A stretch of 64,000 bases of DNA from Hydrogenophaga sp. Lineage in GTDB: Bacteria; Pseudomonadota; Gammaproteobacteria; Burkholderiales; Burkholderiaceae_C. Below are positions 1-19,466 of the stretch, piece after piece. The notes beneath the pieces were generated by a model. It made no database searches. It was not told the origin of the DNA and saw only the letters and a program-made list of their open reading frames with translations. The DNA lies in the NCBI RefSeq assembly GCF_025699295.1, contig NZ_JAILWB010000007.1:124001-188000 (forward strand), read 5' to 3'. Positions within the stretch are counted from its first letter, which is position 1. Each line of letters begins with the position of its first letter. The translations under genes were made by a program, and so were the position numbers.

Positions 1-2741
1 GCATGCCCTGGGCAGCGCACCACCTGTTGCTGCTCACGGCAACGCCGCACATGGGCAAGGAGTACCCCTACTACTGTCTTTGGCGGCTGCTGGAGCCTGA
101 GATCTTCAGCACCGAGACCGCCTGGGCAAAGTTCCCGCGCGAGTCCCGTGACCGCTACTTCGTTCGCCGCGTCAAGGAGGAGATGGTCGACCTGCGCGGC
201 AAGCCCTTGTATGCCCAGCGGCTCTGCGACACGGTCAGCTACGACCTCTCGCAGGGCGAGATCAGCGAACAGGCGCTGTACGACCGCACCACGGCCTACA
301 TCCGTCACTACTACAACCAGGCCCGACTGCTGAACCGTCAGGCCGCACGGTTCGCCATGACCGTGTTCCAGCGGCGCATGGCCAGCAGCACCTGGGCCTT
401 GCTCTGCTCGTTCCGGAACCGCCTCGCCAAACTCAACGCCCTGATCGATGACATCCAGTCCGGCCGAGTGCCCGAGGACGAACTCCGCAGTCAGCAGGAG
501 CGCCTGAACCGCAAGGTGCGCGAGGGCCGGTTGGTGGACGTCCTGGCCGCGAAGACAGCAGACGAGGAGACCTCGACAGCCGGCGCCGAGGAACACGAAG
601 AGAGTGAGGCCGAGGCGCTCGGGGCGTTCATCGCCACCAGCCTGGCGGAGCTGATGGACGAGCGCGGCCAGGTGCAAGAACTGATTGCCCTGGCCGAAAC
701 CGTGCATGCGAGCGGCCAAGAGTCGAAGTTCGAGCGCATGGCTGAGCTGCTGCGCGCGCCGCAGTACCGCGACCAGAAGGTCATCATCTACACGGAACAC
801 CGGGACACCCTGGAGTTCCTCACTCGGCGTCTCGAAGGCATGGGCTACGCCGACCAGGTGGCCTACATCCATGGCGGGCTGGGCTTCGAGGAGCGCGACG
901 CCCAGGTCGAGCGCTTCCGCAGACCCCACGACGCCGAAGGCAAAGGGGCGCGCTTCTTCATCGGCACCGACGCTGCGGCTGAGGGCATCAACCTCCAGTT
1001 CTGCTGGATCCTGTTCAACTACGACGTGCCATGGAACCCGGCGCGGCTTGAGCAGCGCATGGGCCGCATCCACCGCTACGGCCAGAAGCGGGATCGCGTC
1101 GCCATCGTCAACCTTGTCGCCGGCAAGACCCGCGAGGGCCGGGTCATCAAAACCCTGCTGGACAAGCTGGAGGAGATCCGCAAGCAGCTCGGCTCAGACA
1201 AGGTGTTCGACGTGGTGGGCCGCATCTTCGAAGGCATGGCCATCACCGACTACATCCAGCGGGCGGTCGTGTCCGACGACGAAGCGGACAAGAAGGCCCT
1301 GGAGCTGGCCGGTCAACTGACGTCGGAGCAGATCAAGGCCATCGAAGCGCGCGAGGCGTCCATCTACGGCACCGGCGGTGATGTGCTGAGCGATCTGCCC
1401 CAGCTCCGCGAGGCCATGGCCATCGAGGAAATGCGCCGCCTGCTGCCCGGCTATGTGCGCCGCTACCTCGAACACGCCGCTCCGGTCGTCGGCATCGACT
1501 TCGTCGGGGATCTCGATGAGCACTTTTTCATGCGGCCACGCAAGCGCGGCGTGCTCGACAGCATCCTCCCCTTGCTCGAAACCTACCCTGAGTCGGCGCG
1601 TAACCGGTTCACGGTGTACCGCCCCGCCGACGGGCGCGATGCCATCTTCCTGCATCCCGGTGAGCCCGTCTTCGAGCGGCTGTCGGCAATTGCCATCGAC
1701 AGCGCCCGCAACCAGGCGCTGCGCGGCGCGATCTTCACCGACGTCAGCGCCACCGCCCCGTACTTGTTCCATGTGGCGCGCGTCAGCGTCGAGCGCGGTG
1801 TCGACCCGGGGCTGCCGGCATTCCACAGCCCGGATGCCATCGAGCAGCGCCTGGTCGGGCTCAAGCAGTACGCCGATGGGCGTCTGATTGAGACGCCTGT
1901 CGAACACCTGCTGCTCCTGAAACCGACCCCGAAGCCTAGCCCCGGCAGCGTCGTTTTCCTGGCTCAAAGCGACACCTGGCGCCTGGCCGCGCAGGACCAC
2001 ATCCAGCGCGACATGGTTGCCAAGCTGGCGGATCTGCAGCGCATGAGCGCCACGACGCGTCTCACGGAAACTGAGGAGTACCTGCAACGAGCGTTCGACT
2101 ACCAGGAGTCTGAACTGGCCGCAGCGCGCAAGCGCTTCACCGAAAAGGCCCGGGACGGCAACCGTGCCGCTCATGCCGAGCTGGATCGCATCAAGGCCCA
2201 GCAGAAGAGTCTGGCCCAGCGTCGTGAGCAGGCATTGCTGCAGGCTCGGCGCGAGGTCGAACTCATCCAGCCCGGCCGCGTCGAGATGCTGGCCACCGCG
2301 CTGATTCAGCCATCCACCGATCCCGACGACATCAAGGCCCGTGATGTTGAAGTCGAGCGTATCGCCGTCGAGGTCGCCATCGCGTTCGAGGCGGCCCAAG
2401 GCGCCGATGTGCGCGATGTCTCCACACCCCCGAAGGCGCGCTTGGCCGGCCTGAACGACTACCCGGGTTTTGACCTCATGTCCAAGCGCGCCAGCGAGGA
2501 ACGCGGCATCGAAGTGAAGGGGCGTGTTGGTGTCGGTGAGATCGAACTGACCGAGAACGAGTGGGCCCGCGCCTGCATCCTGCGCGAGCGCTACTGGCTA
2601 TATGCCGTGTTCGACTGCGGCGGTGTGCAACCACGGCTCCTCAGGGTGCAGGACCCCTTCGCCAAGCTGATCGCCAAGGCACGCGGCAGCGTTGCCATCG
2701 CGTACAGCGACATCGCCAACGCTTCGGAGGCCGCCGAATGA
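1..2741 (+). CDS. SNF2-family helicase with C-terminal DUF3883 domain (5'-truncated), DrmD-like
   Basis: The N-terminus, including Walker A and DExx box, lies before the window. The visible 912 residues open with helicase motif III (LTATPH near residue 12). A helicase C domain follows at about 255-400, with the EGINLQ and MGRIHRYGQ (motif VI) signatures typical of SNF2 enzymes such as RapA and DrmD. A charged coiled segment occupies about 690-780. A DUF3883/NO VEIN-like domain at about 810-890 has GFDL...IEVKGR, an arrangement reminiscent of PD-(D/E)XK folds. The family pumps or remodels DNA with ATP; in class 1 DISARM the SNF2 protein is DrmD. The stop codon overlaps the next ATG (ATGA), implying translational coupling. 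The start cannot be placed. Helicase and DUF3883 are clear; the DrmD equivalence is an inference. Confidence 0.88.
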   Translation, partial: MPWAAHHLLLLTATPHMGKEYPYYCLWRLLEPEIFSTETAWAKFPRESRDRYFVRRVKEEMVDLRGKPLYAQRLCDTVSYDLSQGEISEQALYDRTTAYIRHYYNQARLLNRQAARFAMTVFQRRMASSTWALLCSFRNRLAKLNALIDDIQSGRVPEDELRSQQERLNRKVREGRLVDVLAAKTADEETSTAGAEEHEESEAEALGAFIATSLAELMDERGQVQELIALAETVHASGQESKFERMAELLRAPQYRDQKVIIYTEHRDTLEFLTRRLEGMGYADQVAYIHGGLGFEERDAQVERFRRPHDAEGKGARFFIGTDAAAEGINLQFCWILFNYDVPWNPARLEQRMGRIHRYGQKRDRVAIVNLVAGKTREGRVIKTLLDKLEEIRKQLGSDKVFDVVGRIFEGMAITDYIQRAVVSDDEADKKALELAGQLTSEQIKAIEAREASIYGTGGDVLSDLPQLREAMAIEEMRRLLPGYVRRYLEHAAPVVGIDFVGDLDEHFFMRPRKRGVLDSILPLLETYPESARNRFTVYRPADGRDAIFLHPGEPVFERLSAIAIDSARNQALRGAIFTDVSATAPYLFHVARVSVERGVDPGLPAFHSPDAIEQRLVGLKQYADGRLIETPVEHLLLLKPTPKPSPGSVVFLAQSDTWRLAAQDHIQRDMVAKLADLQRMSATTRLTETEEYLQRAFDYQESELAAARKRFTEKARDGNRAAHAELDRIKAQQKSLAQRREQALLQARREVELIQPGRVEMLATALIQPSTDPDDIKARDVEVERIAVEVAIAFEAAQGADVRDVSTPPKARLAGLNDYPGFDLMSKRASEERGIEVKGRVGVGEIELTENEWARACILRERYWLYAVFDCGGVQPRLLRVQDPFAKLIAKARGSVAIAYSDIANASEAAE

Positions 2742-4360
2742 ACTCGCTTGAGATCCGCACTGGAGGCGAGCCGCGCCTCACCGCCCCCAAGGAGAGTGCA
2801 CGCGTCCGCGAACGTGAGCTGCTCCGTGTAGCCGGGCAGCTTACCGGTGCTGACGCCGCCGCAGCGGCGCAAGCCGCGCGCTTGGAAGTCCTGAAGTGGG
2901 CTGCCCAGCAAGTTGGCGATCAACTACCCGAAGCAGCGACGGAGGGGCGATCCTTCGAGCATCTGCGTGGTGGACGAACCTGCATCGCCGCAGGCTTCAC
3001 CGATGACCACCGAGCGCTGTGGGCTCTGCGCGTGGACCGGCCCGATGCCAATGTTGCGCAGCGCACCTGGACCACGGAGGTTGTCGTTGGTCATGCCCCG
3101 GGCGGGGCGAGTGCCCTGTTCAGCCTGCGGCTGCTTGCCAGCAGTCCTGAGACAACTCTCCAGGTTGAGCCAGCGGTCCCCGGCCTGGTGCGACAGATCG
3201 CCACCACCTGTGGACTGCATCAGAGTGGCAGCCGGCTAGACGCAACCCCATGGATCATCCAATCTGAAGATGCTGCGCACGAGCTTGTTGCTGCGCTCCT
3301 CAGCCCCGTCCGAACGGTGCCCTACCTGGTCTGCTCCGTCGCTGAGCGCGAGACTCAGCCGGGCATCAACAGCCAGATGCTCGCCAAGGTCACCCTGGGG
3401 ATCGCCAGAGTGGTGGTTGTCCCTGCGGCCTACACCTGGGTGCTGACTCAACATCTGGGCAAACCGCTATCAGTCTTCAACGGCGCCGTTCGCGCTTACA
3501 TGCCCGGCTTCTCGTACGACGCGAACCCCTACGCACACCGGCTCTTCTTCATAGACCCCCAGCCCAGCGAAGAGCGCGCCAAGTCGACGCTCACCGCTCT
3601 GCGCTGGCTTGCCGCCAACGAAAGCATCCGGCGCCTGCACCTGGGCGCTGATGTGCTCGCCTTCTCCGCAGTCCGTGAGGCCAGTCTGGATGTCGAACGC
3701 GAGCTCCTGAAGCAGACTGGTTCGGCCGACACCGAACAACTGCGGGCTGCCCAGGCGCAGATCGATGCCTTGAAGGATGACTTGCGTCGATCCGTCGAAA
3801 CCCAGCAATGGCTGTCTGACGAGCACACGTCTATCGAAGAGCACGCGCAGAGCCTGGAGCAGCAGCTCCGTGGTGCCCAGTTCCGGATCCAACAGCTGCT
3901 GGACCAGATCAAGGCGCGCGGCGACGAACCTGATGCTGGAATCCAACTTCCTGAGAGCTGGGATGCCTTCGCGGACTGGTGCGACGAGGTGCTCGGCGGA
4001 CGTGTTGCGTTGTCGGGCCGCGCACGTAGGGAAACCAAGTCGGCTGGCTTCGATGACCCGCAAACTGCCGCCCGCTGCCTCCTCTGGCTGGCCAATGAGT
4101 ACCGCGACTCGCGCATCAATGGCGCCAGCGGTGACCTGCGCAAGCCGGTCGACGAAGGCATCCACAACGAGCGCTGCGGCGCTGACAGCTTCGAGTTCGG
4201 CTGGGGAACCCGCAAGGTGTCTGTCGAGTGGCACCTCAAGAACGGCGGCAACACCCGCGATCCGCGTCGCTGCCTGCGCATCTACTACTTCTGGGACGAG
4301 GAAAGCCAAATGGTGGTAATCGCCACCATGCCGGCACACATCCGGACCGGGGCGACCTGA
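2738..4360 (+). CDS. Unknown coiled-coil protein of the defence operon
   Basis: A 540-residue protein I do not recognise. The start is the ATG overlapping the helicase stop (ATGA), which gives a leaderless continuation of the operon. No enzymatic motif is evident. An N-terminal half of mixed alpha/beta character is followed by a Gln/Glu-rich coiled coil at about residues 322-392, then a conserved-looking C-terminal domain (about 400-540) rich in aromatic and basic residues. Position between the helicase and the methyltransferase, 12 bp before the next ATG, says it belongs to the defence system. It could be an adaptor or oligomerisation subunit linking helicase and methylase, or a specificity factor; both are guesses. 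It matches no canonical DISARM component that I know (DrmA, DrmB, DrmC, DrmE). Confidence 0.78.
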   Translation: MNSLEIRTGGEPRLTAPKESARVRERELLRVAGQLTGADAAAAAQAARLEVLKWAAQQVGDQLPEAATEGRSFEHLRGGRTCIAAGFTDDHRALWALRVDRPDANVAQRTWTTEVVVGHAPGGASALFSLRLLASSPETTLQVEPAVPGLVRQIATTCGLHQSGSRLDATPWIIQSEDAAHELVAALLSPVRTVPYLVCSVAERETQPGINSQMLAKVTLGIARVVVVPAAYTWVLTQHLGKPLSVFNGAVRAYMPGFSYDANPYAHRLFFIDPQPSEERAKSTLTALRWLAANESIRRLHLGADVLAFSAVREASLDVERELLKQTGSADTEQLRAAQAQIDALKDDLRRSVETQQWLSDEHTSIEEHAQSLEQQLRGAQFRIQQLLDQIKARGDEPDAGIQLPESWDAFADWCDEVLGGRVALSGRARRETKSAGFDDPQTAARCLLWLANEYRDSRINGASGDLRKPVDEGIHNERCGADSFEFGWGTRKVSVEWHLKNGGNTRDPRRCLRIYYFWDEESQMVVIATMPAHIRTGAT

Positions 4361-4371
4361 AGGAACCAACC

Positions 4372-7300
4372 ATGAACAATGACAAACGGCTCATCGAAGT
4401 CGCCTTTCCGCTCAAGCAGACATCAATCGACTCGGTGCATGAGAAGAACGTGCGCCACGGGCACATCTCCACGCTGCACATCTGGCCGGCACGTCGCCCC
4501 CTTGCGGCCAGCCGTGCGGCGTTGATCGCCACGCTGTTGCCCGACCCGGGCGACAAGGACAAGCGCGATGAGCTCCTGAAGCGGCTGGGCGGAACGCTCA
4601 ACAAGACGCTCAAGAAAAAGAAGATGCCCAGCGGGCGCATCGAAGAAATCGAGGCCTGGGAGACCGATGGGGGCGTCTTGCGGTGGGGGCGCGAGGTTGG
4701 CCCGGACATGGAGTGGTTCCGGGACGAGATCCGGCGTGTCTACGGCGGCCGTCAGCCCAAGGTACTCGACCCGTTCTCTGGCGGCGGCGCCATACCGTTG
4801 GAAGCTATGCGCCTGGGCTGCGACGTGACTGCAGTGGACATCAATCCCGTCGCGTGGCTCGTGCTCCGGTGCACGTTGGAGTACCCGCAGAGGCATGCGA
4901 ACTTCAATCGACCGCTGCCGGCATTCGTCAGCACGGACGAGACGTTCATGACGGGCTACCTCAAGGCGAAGGACATGACGCCGGCGCAGATCAAGCGCCA
5001 TCTTCGGGATGCCAAGACCAAGCAGGCAGTCCTGCCGCCTTCCAGCGTCATGGAGACGGTTGAACGTGGTGAGAACCTGAGCTTTCTGGAGCGCCCAGAG
5101 GTCGATTCCGATCTCATGCAGGCCGGCTTGGCCTGGCATGTCCGGGCATGGGGCCGATGGGTCCTGGAGAGGGCTCGCGCGGAACTCGCAACGTTGTACC
5201 CGACCTATGCCGAGTACTGCTCCGTCAAACCGTATCGGCGCGTTCATCTTGATGTGGACGAACCCTTGAAACTGGTGCCGAGCAACGACGCTGGTGAGCA
5301 CCAAGTCGACGTCCTGAACGCAGGATTCGATGCCGCGCATCTGGACAACCCCGCCAATCCACGCTGGGTTGCAAAGCCCACGGTTGCATACCTGTGGGCC
5401 CGCACTGTCAACTGCAAGGCGTGCCGCGCCGAAGTGCCTTTGCTGAAGACACGCTGGCTCGCCAAGAAGGACAACAAGCGCGTGGTGCTGACCATGCGGC
5501 CGCGCGGGGATCGGAGCGGCGTCGAGTTCGGGATCGAGACGGATGCCAAGACCCAAGGCGGGAACGCGGCGCAGAAGCGCGAGTACGACAAGAAGCTCGG
5601 GCAGGGGACCATGAGCCGCTCTGGAGTCACGTGCCCCTGTTGCGGAACCATCATGACGATGGAAGACCTTCGACTCGCAGGTCGCACTGATCGACTCAGC
5701 GCGGTCATCACGGCTGTCGTGGTGGATGGAATGGCAGGGAAGGAGTACCGCCTACCGACGTTGCATGAAGTCGAGGTTGCGCGTTCCGCCAGCTCACGGC
5801 TCGAACAGGTTTTCGCCGAGGTGCCGTTTGGAATGCCCACCGAGCGGTTGGCAGGAGCAGATGCACTGGGCTTCCGTGTTCCCCTTTACGGCCTCGATTG
5901 CTGGCACAAGATCTACAGCCCGCGGCAACTGGTCGCCCTTGGTTGCTTCGTCAAGGCGATCAGGCAGGCGCGCCAGGAACTGGCTAATGCAGGCTATGAC
6001 GCGGCAGAGGTTGAGGCGCTTTCCGCATTCCTGCAATGCGGCTTCGACCGCATGCTCGACTTCAACTCCAGCATCCTGGCGTGGATCACTAGCGTCGAGG
6101 CGATCGGACACACGTTCGTGCGGTTTGCACTGCCCATGAATTGGGACTTCAGCGAAGCAGCCCCCATCAATGATGTTCGCGGCGGATGGTGGATGTGCCT
6201 CGAGGCCGTCGGCGAGTCAATCGAAACGATCTTGCGCGCTGCGAATTCAGTCGCACCGATTCCAAAGGTACTCAACCAGAGCGCCATCGAGTGCCCCGAG
6301 GTGGGCACCTTCGACGTCATCGTCACCGACCCTCCGTACTACGACGCCATCCCTTACTCGGACTTGATGGACTACTTCTACGTCTGGGACCGACGTCAGC
6401 TCGCAGACGTCTCAGATGCCTATCGGCTGGCATTTGATGCCCCCTTGGGACCGAAGTGGCGCAACGACACGAACGACGGCGAGCTGATCGATGACTCGTC
6501 ACGCTTCGGCGGGAACCGTGAGGCCTCAAAGCGCAACTATGAAGAAGGCATGGCACGGTCGTTCAAGGCTTGCCATACCGCGCTTCGCCCAGAAGGCCGC
6601 CTCGTCATTGTGTTTGCACACAAGCAGCCCGATGCCTGGGAAACGCTGGTGTCGGCCATCATCAAGGCAGGCTTCGTTGTTGATGGGTCCTGGCCTATCC
6701 AGACCGAGCAGGCGGCGCGCATGCGTGCACAAGGATCGGCTGCGCTGGCGTCGTCAGTGTGGCTCGTTTGCAAGAAGCGTGATTCGCTCGCACGCGCCGG
6801 TTGGGACACCCAGGTGCTCAAGGAGATGGAAGCCAGCATCAAGAGCAAGCTGCGCGACTTCTGGGACGCGGGCATCCGCGGGCCTGACTTCATCTGGGCC
6901 GCCACCGGTCCGGCGCTGGAGTCGTACAGCCGCTATCCGGCGGTGAAGAAGGCGTCGGAGCCTGGCGCTTTGATGTCGGTCACCGACTTCCTGGGGCATG
7001 TCAGACGCATCGTGGTCGACTTCGTCGTTGGCCGCGTGCTGTCTCATGGTCAGGGCGAGCCCACGCCCGGCGACCATCCACTGGACGATGTGACGACCTA
7101 CTACCTGCTTCACCGCAACGACTTCGGTCTCAAGGAGGCGCCGGCCGGGCCGTGCATCCTGTACGCCGTGTCTTGTGGCCTGTCTGAGCGTGAACTGACC
7201 GACCAGTACGAACTGCTCGTGCGCAGCGGCAGCGCGGCAGCGGCAGAAGACGAAGAAGACGCTGACGAAGACGAGGACGGTGATGCCGATGAGTCGCCGT

Positions 7301-7635
7301 CGTCGGGCGGAGGCGGTAAGTACAAGCTCAGGGACTGGCGCGCTCGAAAGCACCGCTCGCTTGGCATGGAAACGGCCAGCGGCCGCGCGATTCCGTTGAT
7401 CGACCAGGTGCACAAGCTGATGCAGCTCTGGGTGGCGGGCGACGCCGTCAAGGTCAATGAATTTCTGGACAGCCGCGCGTTGCGCCGCAGCCAGGTGTTC
7501 ATTCAGCTGATCCAGGCATTGATCGAGAAGAGTCGCGCAGAGGGCTGCACGGAAGAGTGCTCGATCCTGGAGCGCTTGCAGAACTACCTGCGCCAAGTCG
7601 GCAGTACCGCTCAAGCCCCGCTCGGCTTGGAATAA
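4372..7635 (+). CDS. DUF1156 DNA methyltransferase (adenine-type, DPPY)
   Basis: A 1087-residue protein. The start ATG follows an AAGGAA ribosome site at 4360-4365. The N-terminus (IEVAFPLKQ, then HIWPARRPL) is the DUF1156 signature. SAM-binding motif I is DPFSGGG at 133-139. Catalytic motif IV is DPPY at 653-656, as in N6-adenine or N4-cytosine amino-methyltransferases. Between them are Cys pairs at 348/351 and 421-424 that look like a zinc ribbon. An acidic Asp/Glu run at about 959-976 precedes a C-terminal helical region. DUF1156 methylases are repeatedly found beside DUF499 ATPases in phage-defence loci. The likely role is modification of host DNA to mark self, with helicase, DUF499 and PLD proteins acting on unmodified DNA. 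Base specificity cannot be read from sequence. Confidence 0.9.
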   Translation: MNNDKRLIEVAFPLKQTSIDSVHEKNVRHGHISTLHIWPARRPLAASRAALIATLLPDPGDKDKRDELLKRLGGTLNKTLKKKKMPSGRIEEIEAWETDGGVLRWGREVGPDMEWFRDEIRRVYGGRQPKVLDPFSGGGAIPLEAMRLGCDVTAVDINPVAWLVLRCTLEYPQRHANFNRPLPAFVSTDETFMTGYLKAKDMTPAQIKRHLRDAKTKQAVLPPSSVMETVERGENLSFLERPEVDSDLMQAGLAWHVRAWGRWVLERARAELATLYPTYAEYCSVKPYRRVHLDVDEPLKLVPSNDAGEHQVDVLNAGFDAAHLDNPANPRWVAKPTVAYLWARTVNCKACRAEVPLLKTRWLAKKDNKRVVLTMRPRGDRSGVEFGIETDAKTQGGNAAQKREYDKKLGQGTMSRSGVTCPCCGTIMTMEDLRLAGRTDRLSAVITAVVVDGMAGKEYRLPTLHEVEVARSASSRLEQVFAEVPFGMPTERLAGADALGFRVPLYGLDCWHKIYSPRQLVALGCFVKAIRQARQELANAGYDAAEVEALSAFLQCGFDRMLDFNSSILAWITSVEAIGHTFVRFALPMNWDFSEAAPINDVRGGWWMCLEAVGESIETILRAANSVAPIPKVLNQSAIECPEVGTFDVIVTDPPYYDAIPYSDLMDYFYVWDRRQLADVSDAYRLAFDAPLGPKWRNDTNDGELIDDSSRFGGNREASKRNYEEGMARSFKACHTALRPEGRLVIVFAHKQPDAWETLVSAIIKAGFVVDGSWPIQTEQAARMRAQGSAALASSVWLVCKKRDSLARAGWDTQVLKEMEASIKSKLRDFWDAGIRGPDFIWAATGPALESYSRYPAVKKASEPGALMSVTDFLGHVRRIVVDFVVGRVLSHGQGEPTPGDHPLDDVTTYYLLHRNDFGLKEAPAGPCILYAVSCGLSERELTDQYELLVRSGSAAAAEDEEDADEDEDGDADESPSSGGGGKYKLRDWRARKHRSLGMETASGRAIPLIDQVHKLMQLWVAGDAVKVNEFLDSRALRRSQVFIQLIQALIEKSRAEGCTEECSILERLQNYLRQVGSTAQAPLGLE

Positions 7636-7653
7636 GGACAAGGAGAACCATCG

Positions 7654-10600
7654 ATGGCCAAGACCACCACCAAGCCCTGGCACCAGGTCGTGCAGTTGCG
7701 CGACGACATCACCAACCAGGAGCTGTCGCAGAAGCAGTTTGCTGCGGACCTGTACGACGTCGTGATGCACCGGAACCCGGGCGTTTACCACGACGCCAAG
7801 GAGTTCTTCGCGCTGACCTACCCCACGGTCAAGTTGCGCGACCTCGCGCGCGATGTCACGCACCGCCTGTCGGGCAAATCAGAGAAGGCAGTCCGTCAGC
7901 TGCACATGACCTTCGGTGGCGGCAAAACGCACTCGCTGATCACGCTGGTGCATCTGGTTCGTGATCCGGCGGCGCTGCCCGACATCCCGGCAGTGCAGCA
8001 GTTCAAGGCGCACTGCGCGCTTGAAGCGGGCTTACCCAAGGCACGCGTGGCTTCGGTGGTGTTCGACCGCTTGGACGCAGAAAAGGGCATGGAGGTCACT
8101 GCGCCGGACGGCACTGTGGCCACCATCAAGATGCCCTGGAGCGCGATTGCCTGGCAGCTCGCCGGCCCGGCTGGCATGAAGTTGCTGAAGGACGACGGCA
8201 CAGAGCGCGCCACACCCCCTGCAACTGGCGTGATGGAGGACCTGCTCAAGCTCGCCCGGAAGGGCGGGTCGGGAGTGCTGATCCTGTTCGATGAGGTGCT
8301 GTGGTTTGTGCGCGTGATGGCGGACACCGATCCCGCGTGGATCGGCCGCATGCGCGAGTTCATGCACAGTCTGACCCAGGCGGTGGCCAAGGTGCCGCAG
8401 TGCTGCCTGGTGGCCTCGTTGCTGGCGTCCGACCCTGGGAAGATGGACGAGCTCGGCAAGCAGATCAGCAAGGAGCTGTACGACGAGTTCAAGCGGGTGG
8501 CTGACGAGGGCATTCAGCCGGTCGAGAGCCAGGACGTGCCGGAAATCCTGCGGCGACGCCTGCTCAAGCTGGAAAGCTACACGGACCGGTCGCAGTGGCC
8601 CAGCCAGGTGTTCGGCGCGCTCAGCGGCGTGCAGGGCATCGACGACTACACGGCGAAGAACCGCGCGGCTGAGGAGAAGCGCTACGCGGACGCCTACCCC
8701 TTCCATCCTTCACTGATCGAAACCCTGTATCAAAAGTGGACGCAGCTCGAGGGCTTCCAACAAACGCGCGGCATCCTCAAGACCTTGGCCTCAGCGTTGC
8801 GGGACGCGGTCAAGTGGGACCAGCAGCCGCTCATCGGCGCCCAGATCTTCCTGGTCGAGCCGAAGGCCGATGGCTTGAGTGTCGCGGCCCGCGAGCTGGC
8901 GAATGTGGCTCAGCTGGAACAGTACGAAGGCCGCCGCCAGAACTGGACGGCCATCTTGGAGGCCGAGCTGGTCCACGCGCGAAAGGCACAGGACAGCTTG
9001 CTCGGCATTCAACAGCGAGAAGTCGAGCAAGCGGTGATGGCGACCTTTCTTCACTCGCAGCCCATCGGACAGCGTGCCACCACGCGTGACGTCAAGGTAC
9101 TTATCGGCGTGGGTGCGCCCGACCGGATCGAGCTGGACAAGGGCTTGTCACGCTGGTCCGATGCATCGTGGTATCTCGACGACACGTTCACGGGCGACCG
9201 CGAGGGTGGCCTGCCGAAGGTGTGGCGTCTTGGGTCCAAGCCAAACCTGAAGCAGATGCACCACGACGCTCGACAGAACGTCAGCGCCACCCTGGTCGAC
9301 GAGGTCTTGGAGAAGGAAATACGTGGCGCGGGCAAGCTGACGGAAGGTGCACGCGGCGCCGGTGCCAAGGTGCATGTCCTCCCGGCCCGCCCAGCAGACA
9401 TCGAGGACGACGGCGAGTTCCACTACGCCGTGCTGGGACCGAAGGCGGCAAGCAATGGAAAGCCCAGTGCGGAGGCCAAGCGCTTCATCGATGAGACGAC
9501 CGGGCCCGAGAAGCCGCGCGCGCAGAACCGCAACGCGGTGGTACTTGCGGTGCCATCCAAGGAGGGCATCGATGTCGCCCGCGAGAAGGTCCGCGACCTG
9601 CTTGGGTGGGAGAAGGTCCGCGAGATGCTCAAGGAGCGCAGCGACATCGATACCGCTGCGACAACCCGCCTCGAAGGCAATGTTCGCGCCGCGCGCGGCG
9701 AGATGGTGTCGCAGATTGTCATGGCCTACTGCATCGCCGTCACGGTCAACGACAGCAACGACGTGGCGGCCTACCGCATCAATGTCGACAACGACCCCTT
9801 GTTCCCGAAGATGGTGGCGGACAAGCGCCTGCGGATCGAAAGCTCGGCGGTGAACGCCGAGGCTCTGCTGCCAGGTGGCCCTTTTGATCTGTGGAGTGCC
9901 GGTGACAAGGCGCGCTTCGTCAAGGACCTTGTTGGCGCGTTCGCGGCGACCGCCAAACTGCCGAAGATGCTCAACCGCGCGGCCATTCTGGAGACGTTGC
10001 TCCAGGGCTGCGAGGCTGGTGACTTTGTGCTTCGGGTCACGCGTGCCGACAAGTCGACCCGGACGTTCTGGAAGTGCCGCCCGGATGACAACGCGATCCA
10101 GGACTCGAGTCTGGAAGTCGTCCTCTCTGATGCCGCAGTGCTTACCGAGCTGGATCCGCAGCTGCTGGCACCCAGCAAGTTGCCGAAGCTGTGGGAGAAG
10201 GAGCCAGTGACGCTGGCCGATCTGTCGGCGTATTTCTCCGGCAAGCACTTCGTCGAAGTGGACAAGGGCGGCTACACCGAGAACCTGCTGATTCCGGCCG
10301 CAACACCGCAGGCGATCACCGATGGGGTCGGCGCTGCCGTCAAGGGGGGCCGGATTTGGCTGGTCAACGGAACCGTTAGCGCGCTGGCGGAGGATGTCCC
10401 GGCTGGTTTCGTCAACGACACGGCGCAGTTTTTTCCGCCACCGTTGCCGCTGGCTAGCGTCGACGTGCTGCCGACGCAGTTGCCCACAGCATGGCAGGGC
10501 GAAGCGACCAACGCGCACCTCATTCATGCCGCTTTGTCGTCGAAGGTGGGCAAGGTGTTGCCCTGGACGCGGGTCGTCGGTGCTCTGGACGAGGCCTTCA

Positions 10601-10935
10601 GGGTGGGGCTGATCGAACGCGCGCTCGACTCCGGCGCATGGCCGTGCGATCTCGGCGGTGCCGCCGCGGTCAAGATCGTGACCCGCAAGAGCGAGGCCAA
10701 GGAGCCGCCCCCGACCAAGCACTACGGATCGAAGGCTGCAAGCGCTGACCTCCAGACCCACGAGGTCCAGGATCTCGCCGACAACATCGACGCCCTGAGG
10801 GAGGCGACGGCCGGGCATCCTTTCCGCATCCGTGTGACGGTGGAGATCGGCGACGGCAGTCAGGTCGATCAGTCGATTCTCGACAAGGTGAACGCTGTCC
10901 TTGCGCAGATCAAGGCGGGCTGGAAGGCTGAGTAA
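7654..10935 (+). CDS. DUF499 P-loop ATPase of the defence operon
   Basis: A 1093-residue protein starting 18 bp after the methyltransferase stop, with a strong AAGGAG site at 7640-7645. Walker A is FGGGKTH at 87-93 and a Walker B-like LILFDE lies at 209-214. The N-terminal block (WHQVVQLRDDI, then the region around AKEFF) is typical of DUF499, a large AAA-like ATPase family paired with DUF1156 methylases and with BREX/Pgl-like systems. The protein runs at full family length with no frame disruption. Role inferred: ATP-dependent control of the effector arm or DNA translocation; the biochemistry of DUF499 is not settled. The PLD gene follows 23 bp downstream, so the five genes form one operon. 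Confidence 0.9.
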   Translation: MAKTTTKPWHQVVQLRDDITNQELSQKQFAADLYDVVMHRNPGVYHDAKEFFALTYPTVKLRDLARDVTHRLSGKSEKAVRQLHMTFGGGKTHSLITLVHLVRDPAALPDIPAVQQFKAHCALEAGLPKARVASVVFDRLDAEKGMEVTAPDGTVATIKMPWSAIAWQLAGPAGMKLLKDDGTERATPPATGVMEDLLKLARKGGSGVLILFDEVLWFVRVMADTDPAWIGRMREFMHSLTQAVAKVPQCCLVASLLASDPGKMDELGKQISKELYDEFKRVADEGIQPVESQDVPEILRRRLLKLESYTDRSQWPSQVFGALSGVQGIDDYTAKNRAAEEKRYADAYPFHPSLIETLYQKWTQLEGFQQTRGILKTLASALRDAVKWDQQPLIGAQIFLVEPKADGLSVAARELANVAQLEQYEGRRQNWTAILEAELVHARKAQDSLLGIQQREVEQAVMATFLHSQPIGQRATTRDVKVLIGVGAPDRIELDKGLSRWSDASWYLDDTFTGDREGGLPKVWRLGSKPNLKQMHHDARQNVSATLVDEVLEKEIRGAGKLTEGARGAGAKVHVLPARPADIEDDGEFHYAVLGPKAASNGKPSAEAKRFIDETTGPEKPRAQNRNAVVLAVPSKEGIDVAREKVRDLLGWEKVREMLKERSDIDTAATTRLEGNVRAARGEMVSQIVMAYCIAVTVNDSNDVAAYRINVDNDPLFPKMVADKRLRIESSAVNAEALLPGGPFDLWSAGDKARFVKDLVGAFAATAKLPKMLNRAAILETLLQGCEAGDFVLRVTRADKSTRTFWKCRPDDNAIQDSSLEVVLSDAAVLTELDPQLLAPSKLPKLWEKEPVTLADLSAYFSGKHFVEVDKGGYTENLLIPAATPQAITDGVGAAVKGGRIWLVNGTVSALAEDVPAGFVNDTAQFFPPPLPLASVDVLPTQLPTAWQGEATNAHLIHAALSSKVGKVLPWTRVVGALDEAFRVGLIERALDSGAWPCDLGGAAAVKIVTRKSEAKEPPPTKHYGSKAASADLQTHEVQDLADNIDALREATAGHPFRIRVTVEIGDGSQVDQSILDKVNAVLAQIKAGWKAE

Positions 10936-10958
10936 TCGACGGGCACGAACAGACAGAC

Positions 10959-12311
10959 ATGCGCTTCATCGCCGGCCCCCTCAACAAGCAGCTGCTCCAG
11001 AACCTTCTCGCCGAGGTCATTGAGCCCTGCACGCGTGTTCGGGCGGCGGTTGCCTACGCCAACCGCGACAACCTCCAGCTGTTCGAGGCTTGCGCAAAGC
11101 ACCTGAAGCCACTGGAGTACTTCGGCCGGTATGACTACACCGTGGCCGTCGATCCAGCGGTGCTGAAGTGGTTTCTCGACAAGGCCAGCCCGAACTTCGA
11201 CTGCAAGCTGGTGCCCGACATCCTGCATGCGAAGGTCATCTGGTGGGTGGATGCGGGCGCGTACATCGGGTCGGCCAACCTGTCGGACCGAGCCTGGATC
11301 TCGAACGTCGAGGCCGGCACGTTCCTTTCGCACGACGAGCTTGTCGAGACAGGCATGGAGCGGGAGCTCCTGCACTTCTTCGAGGAAGTGGATGACCGCG
11401 CTCGGCCGCTGACCAGGGAAATTTACCAAGAGCAGCTTCGCCTTGCAGATCGCCGCTCGGACCTTGCGAAGCGCGACTACGGGCTTGGGCAGCAATTCGA
11501 CAAGGACCGCTTGTTGCCGAAGAACCAGGGCTTGGTGTTCGTCGACACAAAGCGGTCGTCCGAGAAGCGCTTTCACAAGTTTGAGCAGGACTGGAACGAC
11601 ACGCTGCAGGTGATGCGCTCCATCGCAGCCAGAGTCTCCGCGTCGGGCGCCAAACCGGGCTGGATCGACGCATCGGTGGCCCCTGGCGTTCAGGCGGACC
11701 AGTTTCTGCATGCCTACTACTACAAGCAGGTCAAGGACGGAAACCGCCACCCCTACGAGGAGTTCTTCGCCAGGAACTCCAAGAACCCGGAGATGGCTCT
11801 GCGGGATGCTTTGGACTGGTGGCATGCCGCCGACTTCGATCACTCTTTCGAAGAGCGCACGATCTATGAGTGGTCGCCACGACTGCACGAGCTTCTGGCA
11901 CGCGACCGCATCTTGAAGTTGACCGAGGAGGAGTTCGTCGACGCCATCTCGCGCGTGCATGCGATACGCGACCACGCCATCAAGCAAGAGAACGAGCATC
12001 TGGGCCTGCCCGATAGCCCGCAGGCAGGCGACGACAAGGTTCTGAAATTCGGCGAATGGCTCTGGCGGCAGAGGTCACGCGATGGCAAGACGGTGCTCGA
12101 CCTGTTGAACTACGTCGCCTGGGGCAACGGAAGCGTCGCGGCCCGACTCTGGAACGCAATCCGAAGCGACCAGTGGGCAATCCCTCACATCGGCCTAAGC
12201 AGCCTAGGGGAGGTCGTCGGTTGGGCCCGCCCTGACGAGTTCCCGCCACGGAACATGCGCACCAGCAAGGGGCTGCGGGCACTGGGCTACAACGTCAGGA
12301 TTGGCGTGTGA
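10959..12311 (+). CDS. Phospholipase D-fold protein (DrmC-like position)
   Basis: A 450-residue protein. The N-terminal 130 residues carry one PLD half-site: H90, K92 and D98 (HAKVIWWVD, slightly wider than the classic HxKx4D spacing), then GSAN at 104-107. A single HKD per chain usually means a homodimeric nuclease, as in DISARM DrmC and Nuc. The rest (about 130-450) is helical, with no further motif I can name. The operon position, last after DUF499, fits an effector or accessory nuclease. No strong ribosome site precedes the ATG; the start is chosen because the MRFIAGP... segment begins the fold. No clear terminator follows. Single-stranded-DNA or phosphodiester hydrolysis is an inference from the family. 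Confidence 0.85.
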   Translation: MRFIAGPLNKQLLQNLLAEVIEPCTRVRAAVAYANRDNLQLFEACAKHLKPLEYFGRYDYTVAVDPAVLKWFLDKASPNFDCKLVPDILHAKVIWWVDAGAYIGSANLSDRAWISNVEAGTFLSHDELVETGMERELLHFFEEVDDRARPLTREIYQEQLRLADRRSDLAKRDYGLGQQFDKDRLLPKNQGLVFVDTKRSSEKRFHKFEQDWNDTLQVMRSIAARVSASGAKPGWIDASVAPGVQADQFLHAYYYKQVKDGNRHPYEEFFARNSKNPEMALRDALDWWHAADFDHSFEERTIYEWSPRLHELLARDRILKLTEEEFVDAISRVHAIRDHAIKQENEHLGLPDSPQAGDDKVLKFGEWLWRQRSRDGKTVLDLLNYVAWGNGSVAARLWNAIRSDQWAIPHIGLSSLGEVVGWARPDEFPPRNMRTSKGLRALGYNVRIGV

Positions 12312-13830: not shown

Positions 13831-16617
13831 TCAGGCGAGGCCCATATCTGTCGCTTCATCGAAGACCTCCGTGGTTTCGCTGTGAAAGATTCGCGCGAGC
13901 CATTCGTCCTTGATGCGGGCTCCCTTGACCGCCTTCAGCGGCTTGCTAGTGCCGTCCTTGCACTTCACTCGGGGGTTGAAAGTGATCAGGCGGCCATCGC
14001 TGTTGGAGTAGACCTCGCCCATGAAGCTGTTCTTTTGCAAGACGTGCTTCGCGCCCTCGTCTGCGCACCACTGCCGGTACACGTCGTAGAGCTTGTCCTT
14101 GCTTACCCACGCGCCGGCATCGAACTCCAGCGCGTCGCTGATGAAGCCCAGGATCGGCGTCGTTTTGCGCACCAACTCCTCGACGGCCTCCAGCCCGCTG
14201 GCCGGTTGAATGAAGGCGCCACGGTCCTGCAACGCTTTCAGCCCGTCTAGCGCCCAGTTCAGGATCCCCGGCAGTTCGGCTATTAGTTTCTCGGTCAGCT
14301 TGTGGTCTTCGCGCCCGAAGAACGACTGGGTGAATCGCAGCACAATGAACCGTGAGGCCACCGCGCCGCCGCCGTCCACGATCCCGGGCAGGATATTGGT
14401 CATCAGCACGAAACGCGTCGGCAGCTTGCCCTCCCAGTTCGAGATTCCCTTGCGCTGCACGCTGACCGCGTCCTCGCCCGTGATGCGCAGCAGGTTCTCG
14501 CTGATTGACTGGAGGTCCGCGCTGCCGCTGATGCGGGCGTCCGAGATCACCGCCAGCTTCGCGTTGATCAGACCCTGCAGTCCAAAGTCCTTGCCGATCT
14601 GACCAAGCGTCGGCCCGGTGAAGTTGTGTTCACCGAGCAGTCCGCGCAGCACACGGGCGATGGTCCCCTTGCCGCAGCGCTTGGGACCAACGCAGATCAG
14701 CGCCTTCTGCTGCGATGTGTCGCTCGTTACGAGGTAGCCGAACCACTGCTGCAGGCTGTCGATGGATTCCTGGTCGCTAGGGAAGGCGTCTGCCAGGAAT
14801 TGCAGCCAGTGCTCCGGTACAGGGGCCCGCGGGTCGTAGGCCACGTCTGCAGCGTCCACGCTGAAGTACAGCGGGTCGTGCGGTAGCAACTGGCGGGTGG
14901 GAAGGTGCAGAAGGCCGTTGCTGATGGCGACCACCTCATTGACAGCCACTTGGGGGGCCTTGGTCAACCAGCTCGGCATCCGCGTAGACGAGGGCACGTT
15001 GGTCAACGCCTTGACGGCGTCGATGGTGTTGTCGACAACGCCGCGCCCGGGCAGCGGCACACCGCTTTGCTCGAAGAGCCGGTACACCTTGGCCCGGATG
15101 TCGGCCACCGACACCGGCTGGTATCGGGATCCGTTCCACGCCAGGAACTCGTCCTGCCAGTGGCGAAGGCTCAGCGCACCCTTGGGCGTGGTGAAGAAAG
15201 CCGCCAAGAACGCACGTGCGGTTGGCACCGGCCACTCCACGCTGACCTCGGCCGCGTCCTCATCTGGTCCGAGACGCTTGGCCTTGGTCAGGTCATCGCG
15301 CAGGGCCTTGAGAGACAAGCCCGTAGCGCCCTTCAGCCGCTTCAGCAACTCGTCAACTTCGCTGGGCTTGAGGCCCTTGGCCGACACGAGCTCGGTGATC
15401 ACGATGTCGGCGAGTTCCACTGGCGCGTATCCCGCGAATGTTGCTGCGTCGATGACGTTGGCGATCTCGGCGTGGGTCTTACCAGACGTTTGGGCAGGTG
15501 CCCGCAGTCCAAGCTCAGCCGCTGCCGCCTTGATCGCTTCGTTGAACTTGCCGCCGTGGGTGAAGTGACAGAAGAGGTCAAACGCGTCACCGAAGCGGTG
15601 GCCGCTCCTGGACTCGGCGCCCAGCTTGGCGTCCGCATCGCTGGCGCTCAGGCTGATCCAGTGACCATCGATCACACGCGTCGCGTAACTGCCACTGCTC
15701 TGGTACGGGCTACGCCAGTCCGACTCGTTCGCCGGAGACTGCTCGTACGCGTTGTCGATCAGCAGCTCTTCTACCCCGTGGGCTGTGTTGTAGGCCGCGA
15801 TGACACTGGTATCGTCACCGGCCCCGCGTTGTGCACGCCGACGCTCACGCGAAGCTTGAGCTTCTGCTCGAACACGCTCAAGAGCATCAGAGTCTGTCTG
15901 GCGCTTGGCCAGCAGCTCGTTTACGTGCTGCTCGGCCAAGCCGTCGGTCGCCGTGTGCCCACGGCCGTCATGCGCCTTGCGGAAGAAGAACTTGGGCTTG
16001 CCATCAACGTTGCGCGCGGCCTTGGGCACGTTGGGTAAGTAGGCGATCTGCCCGGCCCGAGCCAACGACCAGTCCATCCGGCAACCGTTGGCTTCCATGT
16101 ACCCGTAGAAGGCCATGCACAGCGCGTTCCAGTCGGCGAACGGCAGTGGCTGCGCCAGGGGAACCAGCGTGCGCCAGCGCTTCGATTCCGCGGTTGAGCT
16201 GGCCGTGCTGTAGATCAGGTGAGCGACGCCATCACCAAAGAACTCCTGCACCAAATGCTGAACCCGTTCGAGCGGGGTATCACCCTTGTCGATATCGCCC
16301 GGTATCGCCACGAACTGACCATGAAGGCGCTGGGCTTCGTGGTTGCGCCCGTCAAAGGCGTGGTAGGTCGAGGCAATCAGCGCCGGCGCGCATAGCTTCG
16401 GGATCGCCGCTGGCTCAGTTTGGTCAAAGACCTCGCCGAGCGAGATCGTCTTGTAGTCCGCACCCGACTCAATCTGGGTATCAAACGAGCCAGCGCACGT
16501 CAGCACACGATGGTGTCGCCACTTGGTTGTAGCCGCAGCAACCGGCTGCTCGTGGCCATTTAGGCCGTGTCCTTGCCCGCCGGTTGCCACAGAAAAATCA
16601 GGGACGGCTACAGTCAT
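13831..16617 (-). CDS. Primase-helicase, phage/plasmid P4/D5 type
   Basis: A 928-residue protein. The N-terminal part (about 60-200) looks like an archaeo-eukaryotic primase-polymerase: GDIDKGD, then YSTASST and RWRTLVPLAQPL. The C-terminal part is a superfamily 3 helicase of the D5/DUF5906 type, with Walker A GPKRCGKGT at 644-652 and downstream AVISDAR and RFVLMTN motifs. Such proteins initiate replication of integrated satellites and islands (P4 alpha class). Its ATG overlaps the stop of the preceding small gene (ATGA at 16617-16614). It is last in the integrase-led gene chain and ends 22 bp from the iteron array. The protein is intact, so the element may still replicate after excision. Confidence 0.9.
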   Translation of the reverse strand: MTVAVPDFSVATGGQGHGLNGHEQPVAAATTKWRHHRVLTCAGSFDTQIESGADYKTISLGEVFDQTEPAAIPKLCAPALIASTYHAFDGRNHEAQRLHGQFVAIPGDIDKGDTPLERVQHLVQEFFGDGVAHLIYSTASSTAESKRWRTLVPLAQPLPFADWNALCMAFYGYMEANGCRMDWSLARAGQIAYLPNVPKAARNVDGKPKFFFRKAHDGRGHTATDGLAEQHVNELLAKRQTDSDALERVRAEAQASRERRRAQRGAGDDTSVIAAYNTAHGVEELLIDNAYEQSPANESDWRSPYQSSGSYATRVIDGHWISLSASDADAKLGAESRSGHRFGDAFDLFCHFTHGGKFNEAIKAAAAELGLRAPAQTSGKTHAEIANVIDAATFAGYAPVELADIVITELVSAKGLKPSEVDELLKRLKGATGLSLKALRDDLTKAKRLGPDEDAAEVSVEWPVPTARAFLAAFFTTPKGALSLRHWQDEFLAWNGSRYQPVSVADIRAKVYRLFEQSGVPLPGRGVVDNTIDAVKALTNVPSSTRMPSWLTKAPQVAVNEVVAISNGLLHLPTRQLLPHDPLYFSVDAADVAYDPRAPVPEHWLQFLADAFPSDQESIDSLQQWFGYLVTSDTSQQKALICVGPKRCGKGTIARVLRGLLGEHNFTGPTLGQIGKDFGLQGLINAKLAVISDARISGSADLQSISENLLRITGEDAVSVQRKGISNWEGKLPTRFVLMTNILPGIVDGGGAVASRFIVLRFTQSFFGREDHKLTEKLIAELPGILNWALDGLKALQDRGAFIQPASGLEAVEELVRKTTPILGFISDALEFDAGAWVSKDKLYDVYRQWCADEGAKHVLQKNSFMGEVYSNSDGRLITFNPRVKCKDGTSKPLKAVKGARIKDEWLARIFHSETTEVFDEATDMGLA

Positions 16618-17445: not shown

Positions 17446-17943
17446 TCAGTCCTCGTCAAACATGCGCTTGATTCGCTTGATCACCTCTTCATCGGAGCAG
17501 TTCTCCCAGTCTTTTGGTGCCACTGACCGGGCGTAGGTGATGGTGGCTATGCGACGAGTCCACTGGCGCGCCTTCTCGTAGATCGCCTCGTCGGTCAACC
17601 CTGCCCAATCTCTATCTGGCATCTCGCGCTTGTATGAGTGCACCACAGCCGCGTGGTCGCGGGCATCCTTCCTTCCCTCGAAGTACTTCCAGTACTCCGG
17701 TGGTTCGAAGCTGTTCCAGAGCTTGATCTTCTGCACTGTTTCTGGAGGCGTTCCGCGCTTTCCGGTCAGTCCAATTGCCCTAGCCAGATCGTTTGGACTG
17801 ACCTGTGAGGACTGGTTAGCCTTGACCACCTTTCGTGCAACCTCCTCAATCCACGAGACGAGGTCGATGGGGTGTCCTTCCTCGTCGCGTAGGGCTCCGT
17901 CGGCAATCAGCTGCCACCGTTCAAGTGCATCTGCGCGCTTCAT
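17446..17943 (-). CDS. Hypothetical protein coupled to the integrase
   Basis: A 165-residue protein. Its ATG overlaps the integrase stop (ATGA at 17943-17940), so it is translated together with the integrase. The composition is soluble, charged and helical, with several Trp and Lys/Arg residues (YWKYFEGRKDARDH, then WTRRIATITYARS). There is no signal peptide or membrane segment. I cannot name a domain. A 93-bp gap to the AlpA-like gene may hold a second promoter. Confidence 0.68.
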   Translation of the reverse strand: MKRADALERWQLIADGALRDEEGHPIDLVSWIEEVARKVVKANQSSQVSPNDLARAIGLTGKRGTPPETVQKIKLWNSFEPPEYWKYFEGRKDARDHAAVVHSYKREMPDRDWAGLTDEAIYEKARQWTRRIATITYARSVAPKDWENCSDEEVIKRIKRMFDED

Positions 17944-19418: not shown

Positions 19419-19466
19419 GCCTTCACACGGCAGGGGTCGCAGGTTCGAACCCTGCACCGCCCACCA
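19419..19466 (+). other. Attachment site: 3' fragment of tRNA-Val(CAC)
   Basis: The sequence runs from the anticodon loop to the CCA end of a tRNA. Anticodon loop TTCACAC (19422-19428), stem GGCAG, variable GGGTC, T-arm GCAGG/TTCGAAC/CCTGC, acceptor strand ACCGCCC, discriminator A, CCA at 19464-19466. Upstream of 19419 the sequence no longer fits a tRNA: there is no D-arm and no GGGCGGT 5' strand. This is the standard scar of tRNA-targeting integrases. The intact gene should flank the element's other end. A terminator for the tRNA follows at 19491. Confidence 0.88.

What the first reader, a model, noticed from the sequence alone, without database searches (positions are those of the whole stretch)
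1..12311. Non-canonical DISARM-like defence operon with DUF1156, DUF499 and an unknown coiled-coil subunit
Seen: five plus-strand genes, the first two overlapping by ATGA and the rest 11 to 23 bp apart. They encode an SNF2 helicase with DUF3883 tail, a coiled-coil unknown, a DUF1156 methyltransferase with DPPY, a DUF499 ATPase and a one-HKD PLD protein. Known: DISARM class 1 combines an SNF2 helicase, methylase and PLD protein with DrmA and DrmB; DUF1156-DUF499 pairs mark other phage-defence loci. This set shares helicase and PLD with DISARM but uses a different methylase and adds DUF499. DrmA and DrmB are not visible; they could be upstream of the window. Inference: a methylation-based self/non-self system that is a variant or hybrid, best candidate here for an undescribed system.
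Basis: partly seen in the sequence, partly recalled or inferred. Interest (0 to 1): 0.78.

Follow-up and report, generated by a model that had tools for sequence, protein, structure and literature searches.

The report
Hma defence operon carrying embedded HEC-07
This is a five-gene anti-phage restriction-modification-type operon of the already described Hma (BREX-related) kind, not DISARM, and its "unknown" gene belongs to a catalogued but uncharacterised family that is found in different kinds of restriction operon.

Summary
The five genes are real, intact and ordered as described, but the system is not DISARM-like. PADLOC profiles name HmaA, HmaB and HmaC; the "unknown coiled-coil subunit" is HEC-07 (650.8 bits), a listed Hma-embedded candidate. 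The helicase starts 847 bp left of the window. No DrmB match exists in the genome. The operon fits Type-1 BR/Hma best and lies on a ~21 kb integrative element at tRNA-Val.

Beyond the label: HEC-07 looks like optional cargo. It lies between hmaA and hmaB in 10 of 80 fetched HEC-07 loci, in the window and in G082; between hsdS and hsdR of type I restriction operons in 3 of 80; the other 67 show neither (some are cut by contig ends). The HmaB tree needs four gains or losses of HEC-07; one clade is rejected (p about 1e-4). Four close HmaB relatives, window included, turned up in 348 genomes searched without using HEC-07; two carry it. Its nearest relatives outside the window group sit in type I operons. 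The PLD gene is also detachable. HEC-07's activity remains unknown; I favour a self-contained back-up effector.

The parts
1..2741 (+). hmaA, 3' part of a 1195-aa protein that starts 847 bp left of the window (L002:3154): Xre-type HTH, SWI2/SNF2 helicase, RapA-like C-terminal region (by reading), C-terminal NOV_C PD-(D/E)XK-like domain
   Evidence: PDLC00659 HmaA E 8.4e-152; HTH_3, SNF2, Helicase_C, NOV_C; GAGKT at 146, DEAH at 245, FEA at 1078, GFD at 1105, EVK at 1120
2738..4360 (+). HEC-07 (Hma-embedded candidate 07), 540 aa: N-terminal conserved region, coiled coil, C-terminal conserved region; function unknown
   Evidence: PDLC04161 E 5.1e-196, 650.8 bits; conserved residues from 77 rows
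4372..7635 (+). hmaB, DUF1156 DNA methyltransferase, 1087 aa, DPFSGGG and DPPY motifs and two CxxC pairs
   Evidence: PDLC00661 E 7.5e-117; PF06634; motifs
7654..10935 (+). hmaC, DUF499 AAA+ ATPase, 1093 aa, Walker A GGGKT and Walker B LILFDE; DUF499 is its only Pfam match (no HEPN match)
   Evidence: PDLC00662 E 2.6e-75; PF04465; motifs
10959..12311 (+). standalone single-HKD phospholipase-D-like protein, 450 aa, optional accessory
   Evidence: PLDc_2 and PLDc weak, below Pfam cut-off; HAK...GSAN
13831..16617 (-). D5-type primase/helicase of the integrative element that carries the operon
   Evidence: PF19263, PF08706, PF03288
17940..19196 (-). tyrosine integrase of the element
   Evidence: PF00589, PF13356
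19419..19466 (+). right attachment repeat: 48-bp exact copy of the 3' end of the tRNA-Val(cac) that lies 1486-1560 bp left of the window
   Evidence: element about 20.95 kb

Best explanation
The locus is a Type-1-like Hma/BREX-Related (DUF499-centred) restriction-modification operon with two detachable accessories, on a tRNA-integrated element. Inferred working: HmaB methylates adenines at a recognition site to mark self DNA; HmaC, an AAA+ ATPase, assembles or licenses a scanning complex on DNA; HmaA moves along unmodified DNA and cuts it with its C-terminal PD-(D/E)XK-like domain. HEC-07 sits in the hmaA|hmaB joint, overlapping hmaA by ATGA. It is a portable module, most likely a self-contained back-up effector that acts when phage DNA modification or anti-restriction proteins defeat the methylation-based core. 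The PLD protein is a second optional nuclease that probably acts as a dimer. Shown here: gene content, intact motifs, family membership, repeated association of HEC-07 with two different methylation-based systems, attachment repeats of a mobile element. Inferred: every biochemical step and the role of HEC-07.
For: Profiles HmaA, HmaB, HmaC and HEC-07; motifs intact; HEC-07 between hmaA and hmaB in 10 of 80 HEC-07 loci, the window and G082, and between hsdS and hsdR in 3 of 80; ATGA in 11 of 11 direct junctions; HEC-07 tree needs 5 changes of the Hma label (3 forced by starred branches; shuffled mean 11.4, so partly clustered), with type I-embedded L022 and L023 next to the window group; HmaB tree needs 4 changes (shuffled mean 4.3), one HEC-07 clade rejected, p-AU 9.9e-5; close HmaB relatives without HEC-07 in the stretches held of G327 and G411; another gene in the same joint in L205. 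Precedents in print: several Hma-embedded candidates with antiviral activity (PMC12988326, passages); HEC-05 and HEC-06 as independently acting GmrSD-like enzymes and TgvAB embedded in type I RM (PMC11411939, passages).
Against: No experiment on this operon. HEC-07 shows no similarity to a nuclease or other effector family: only weak, mostly coiled-coil-type matches, so 'effector' rests on location and precedent; it could be an adaptor or regulator. 67 of 80 HEC-07 loci are in neither context; 46 of these 67 have 1.5 kb or more on both sides. Of ten neighbour proteins of such loci, 1 had a PADLOC hit, so standalone HEC-07 is not clearly in defence surroundings.
Confidence: 0.72

Rival explanations
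1. HEC-07 is a regulatory or specificity subunit of the host restriction complex (Hma or type I), binding the motor through its coiled coil, rather than a separate defence.
For: ATGA coupling to hmaA; long coiled coil; partners in both contexts include a helicase-type motor and a DNA methyltransferase.
Against: Not found with close HmaB relatives in G327 and G411; in Hma operons without it hmaA and hmaB can be directly coupled (L097, L103); 67 of 80 HEC-07 genes show neither context.
Confidence: 0.22
2. DISARM class 1 variant or hybrid.
For: SNF2 helicase with DUF3883-type tail and a PLD protein; DrmD and DrmC profiles match below cut-off.
Against: HmaA scores far better than DrmD; NCBIfam cut-offs for DrmD and DrmC not reached; no DrmB match in the genome; none of seven scanned ORFs to the left is Drm-like.
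Confidence: 0.02
3. The five genes are a fixed, undescribed five-subunit system.
For: All five also stand together in L018.
Against: PLD found behind hmaC in 2 of 7 window-lineage loci with at least 1.4 kb behind hmaC (window, L018; not L016, L017, L025, L229, L230); a 91% identical PLD stands behind McrC-like and Vsr-like genes in L133; HEC-07 not found in G327 and G411.
Confidence: 0.04

Closest known systems
Hma (PADLOC; helicase-methylase-ATPase)
   Same: All three core proteins and their order; PADLOC profiles match at E 2.6e-75 to 8.4e-152
   Different: HmaB is divergent (389.5 bits, against 1282-1634 for the six best, other matches there being lower); HmaA bears an N-terminal Xre-type HTH; HEC-07 and PLD added
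Type-1 DUF499-centred BREX-Related (BR) system (PMC12839542)
   Same: ATPase, DUF1156 methyltransferase, SWI2/SNF2 helicase with C-terminal REase-like tail
   Different: HTH at the N-terminus of the helicase; extra embedded and trailing genes; not placed on that paper's tree
HEC-07 (PADLOC-DB 2.0.0)
   Same: Near full-length match of gene 2 (residues 15-540), 650.8 bits
   Different: None found; the label says candidate, function unknown
TgvAB in type I RM; [quoted passage not shown]
   Same: Extra defence genes embedded in methylation-based restriction operons
   Different: Those are GmrSD-like; no GmrSD-type domain was among the Pfam matches shown for HEC-07 (first 25 of 56 weak families shown; none at all for the window protein)
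DISARM class 1
   Same: SNF2 helicase and PLD protein in a restriction-type operon
   Different: No DrmB in the genome, different methyltransferase, DUF499 present

Membership tests
Hma | HmaA helicase, HmaB methylase and HmaC ATPase in one operon | tested here: met
   profiles; gene order; HEC-07 lies between A and B
Type-1 BR | Helicase with C-terminal active REase (PD-(D/E)XK) | tested here: inconclusive
   NOV_C domain with FEA...GFD...EVK residues; equating NOV_C with the paper's REase is my inference
Type-1 BR | N-terminal TUDOR domain in the helicase | tested here: inconclusive
   HTH_3 at residues 6-42; no TUDOR model matched in Pfam; fold not predictable here
Type-2 BR | HKD nuclease fused to the helicase, and DUF3780 gene | tested here: not met
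   HKD is a separate gene; no DUF3780 match in the five proteins; NCBIfam anti-phage DUF1156, DUF499 and PLD-helicase models match below cut-off (177/1000, 106/1200, 148/1100 bits)
Type-3 BR | PglZ and iSTAND genes in the core locus | tested here: not met
   No PglZ match among the five proteins in Pfam or NCBIfam (for the helicase NCBIfam showed 25 of 29); iSTAND only to the extent that profiles exist
DISARM | DrmB (DUF1998/MZB) | tested here: not met
   no match in the genome for PF09369 (8 of 14 controls positive) or NF038324 (2 of 14 controls positive)
DISARM | DrmA helicase | tested here: inconclusive
   Only the operon proteins were scored (helicase: PDLC02572 188 bits, below HmaA 505); no genome-wide DrmA search
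DISARM | DrmD / DrmC at curated cut-off | tested here: not met
   323 against 610 and 28.6 against 133 bits
HEC-07 | Match to PADLOC HEC-07 profiles over nearly full length | tested here: met
   four HEC-07 models, best E 5.1e-196; all 77 rows of A3 match all four models
Anti-phage activity | Reduced plaquing by the operon | not testable with these tools
   no experiment possible
RelE/ParE-like toxins (considered for HEC-07 C-terminal region) | Profile similarity to YafQ or HigB | tested here: not met
   hhalign probability 0.34 and 0.70; 15 column shuffles reach up to 2.4 and 7.2; YafQ-HigB positive control 92.5

The most novel reading that the evidence does not exclude
HEC-07 is an undescribed kind of self-contained anti-phage effector, built of two unknown domains joined by a coiled coil, that is repeatedly inserted at one coupled joint of methylation-based restriction operons of different kinds (DUF499/Hma and type I RM) to catch phages that escape methylation sensing; and the window's HTH-helicase Hma is a deep fourth lineage of DUF499-centred systems.
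Probability: 0.3. Interest if true: 0.58.

Novelty: new member of a known kind. Interest (0 to 1): 0.33.

Why it matters
It removes a false DISARM hybrid from the list and gives the locus its name. If HEC-07 is an independent effector swapped between Hma and type I operons, the two restriction classes share a common pool of back-up weapons, and the window, its sister type I operons (L022, L023) and the HEC-07-free relatives (G327, G411) form a natural with/without set for testing it.

Tried and rejected
DISARM hybrid: rejected on the missing DrmB and on profile scores. RelE/ParE-like fold for the HEC-07 C-terminal region, suggested by a motif resemblance that I recalled: not supported by profile-profile comparison with shuffled, reversed and positive controls. 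Known domains in HEC-07: the window protein has no Pfam match at E 0.001 and no NCBIfam match at E 0.01; over 77 rows at E 0.1 Pfam gives 56 weak families (25 shown), at most 7 rows each, mostly coiled-coil families, best E 1.3e-4; PADLOC gives HEC-07 and nine other models weakly in 1-2 rows each, best E 0.0032; PDB sequences give coiled coils at best E 0.038 for the whole, none for the N-terminal part, three for the C-terminal part at best E 0.31. HEC-07 in phages: no tblastn match in 50,697 records; in IMG/VR 41 pattern matches, none confirmed; plasmids: 15 of 72,556 records, one covering 80% or more of the query. Empty attachment site in a relative: looked for in one locus (L135) and not seen. 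The first HmaB tree labelled rows with little or no upstream sequence as lacking HEC-07; redone with four such or unclear rows (L104, L105, L109, L123) unlabelled and six distant or partial rows dropped (L108, L111, L113, L114, L116, L118).

Literature: no paper in the held library contains HEC-07 as a word. A search for HEC07 and four sister names gave 31 papers, 15 listed, none of those 15 with HEC07. That HEC stands for Hma-embedded candidate was seen in passages of PMC10855318 and PMC12988326. The Payne et al. preprint that named HECs is not held and was not read (seen as a reference).
Full report
Observation. The window is G000:C40:124001-188000, and the helicase runs on to the left: full length 1195 aa, starting 847 bp before the window. 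Spacing is as described: ATGA overlap, then 11, 18 and 23 bp. The motifs I looked for are present in the four enzymes: GAGKT and DEAH in the helicase, a C-terminal FEA...GFD...EVK set in NOV_C, DPFSGGG and DPPY in the methyltransferase, GGGKT in the ATPase, one HxK...GSAN in the PLD protein.

Identity. PADLOC-DB names the genes HmaA (E 8.4e-152), HEC-07 (E 5.1e-196), HmaB (E 7.5e-117) and HmaC (E 2.6e-75); the PLD protein matches ZacB and DrmC models weakly (best E 2.2e-7). Pfam adds HTH_3 and NOV_C in the helicase, DUF1156 and DUF499. Hma was named in the 2021 PADLOC paper (PMC8565338, passages), which called HmaB an m5C methyltransferase. PMC12839542 (abstract, passages and sections 27, 29, 30, 33) treats these as DUF499-centred BREX-Related systems with an N6-adenine methyltransferase, in three types. 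The window fits Type 1 best: no fused HKD nuclease or DUF3780 (Type 2) and no PglZ (Type 3) among its five proteins. Two points stay open: whether NOV_C is the REase meant in that paper, and the HTH at the helicase N-terminus in place of, or before, the TUDOR domain. HTH_3 was found in the helicases of the window, L018 and L025 but not in L011 or L062; a similar HTH can be read in L229.

Not DISARM. No DrmB match in the genome by two families with positive controls. NCBIfam DrmD and DrmC cut-offs are not reached. To the left, seven ORFs were scanned: an RNase T-family exonuclease, an aminotransferase, uvrB and two others with ordinary matches, and two without any match; tRNA-Val(cac) lies nearest the operon. 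DrmA was not searched genome-wide.

Setting. The last 48 bp of that tRNA-Val recur exactly at window 19419-19466, beside a tyrosine integrase at 17940-19196 and a D5-type primase. The operon therefore sits on an integrative element of about 20.95 kb. An empty site was not shown.

HEC-07 elsewhere. HEC-07 profile matches occur in 8 of 274 genomes of the class, the window's included, four of them full or nearly full length. A scan of GTDB species genomes gave 130 confirmed relatives, of which 80 were kept. In 10 of these 80 it lies between hmaA and hmaB (L016-L021, L025, L062, L065, L085; hmaB is off the contig in L065, and a DUF3800 gene comes first in L025); so too in G082 and in the window. 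In 3 of 80 (L022, L023, L031) it lies between hsdS and hsdR of a type I restriction operon, with further genes in the same interval (the L022 genes are named by Pfam, those of L023 and L031 by similarity to them, hsdS of L031 weakly at 25 bits). The other 67 show neither; 55 of 80 have 1.5 kb on both sides (6 Hma, 3 type I, 46 other). L032 has an HmaA gene about 6 kb away; L034 and L039 have type I genes elsewhere on the locus. Ten proteins beside "other" loci were checked against PADLOC: 9 of 10 without a hit, one GajB-like.

History. On the HEC-07 tree (77 rows: window, L003 and 75 of 80 loci; L040, L081, L087, L095 dropped as partial, L045 as identical) the Hma label needs 5 changes, 3 forced by well-supported branches, and the type I label 2. 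Shuffled labels need more (mean 11.4 for Hma), so the label is partly clustered, near-copies helping. The sister of the window's Hma group is the type I pair L022/L023. On the HmaB tree (18 rows, 14 labelled) the HEC-07 label needs 4 changes, shuffled mean 4.3, and a single HEC-07 clade is rejected, p-AU 9.9e-5. The HEC-07 rows there came from HEC-07 searches and the others from an HmaB search, so proportions mean nothing. A survey not based on HEC-07 (window HmaB against 348 genomes of the order, 37 with a match) found four members at 63% identity or more: the window's G000 and G559 (partial; same contig as L020 by length and coordinates) with HEC-07, G327 and G411 without it in the stretch held. 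L109, placed near L025 on the tree, has no upstream sequence. At 11 of 11 direct junctions HEC-07 starts inside the hmaA stop by ATGA; where HEC-07 is missing, hmaB overlaps hmaA the same way in L097 and L103, not in L099. In L205 a 1408-aa gene (sacsin-like by eye, not searched) fills the same joint; in L204 and L230 other genes precede hmaB but hmaA was not seen. DUF3800 genes precede HEC-07 both in a type I operon (L022) and in an Hma operon (L025).

PLD. It stands behind hmaC in the window and L018, 2 of 7 window-lineage loci with at least 1.4 kb behind hmaC (L016, L017, L025, L229, L230 lack it; L019 ends at the contig edge). A 91% identical copy in G583 follows McrC-like and Vsr-like genes. 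Matches were found in 3 of 252 genomes of the class (one broken, one partial) and 2 of 349 of the order, the window's own genome included in both counts.

What HEC-07 does. No informative database domain was found. Invariant residues over 77 rows are F73, W95, R192, R252, W414, Y516, W519 and H534. A RelE-like reading of the C-terminal region was tested and not supported. The inference that it is a back-up effector rests on location and on precedents: several Hma-embedded candidates with tested activity (PMC12988326, passages), and GmrSD-like enzymes embedded in Hma and type I operons (PMC11411939, passages).

Verdict. A known kind of system, correctly seen and misnamed; the portable, uncharacterised HEC-07 module is the part worth following.

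Noticed in passing
window 19419-19466 and C40:122468-122515: 48-bp exact tRNA-Val repeat bounding a ~20.95 kb integrative element with integrase and D5-type primase; the defence operon lies inside it.
   Followed up: partly
L023:8792-9997: A SMODS-type nucleotidyltransferase (PF18144, PADLOC Cyclase E 1.1e-106) lies between hsdS and HEC-07 inside a type I restriction operon.
   Followed up: no
L133:66-1446: McrC-like and Vsr-like genes directly before a PLD gene 91% identical to the window's.
   Followed up: partly
L205:1851-6077: 1408-aa protein (sacsin-like by eye) occupies the hmaA|hmaB joint.
   Followed up: no
L019: Record titled Chthonomonas calidirosea (a MAG) carries an operon whose HEC-07 is 98% identical to the window's; the MAG label or binning may be wrong.
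   Followed up: no
L007 and L008: Separate proteins match only the C-terminal part (L007) or only the N-terminal part (L008) of the HEC-07 profile, suggesting two separable domains.
   Followed up: no
L043-L093 (Gemmatimonadota among them): Many of the HEC-07 relatives come from Gemmatimonadota, some MAGs with two copies (for example VXQO01: L044 and L050).
   Followed up: no
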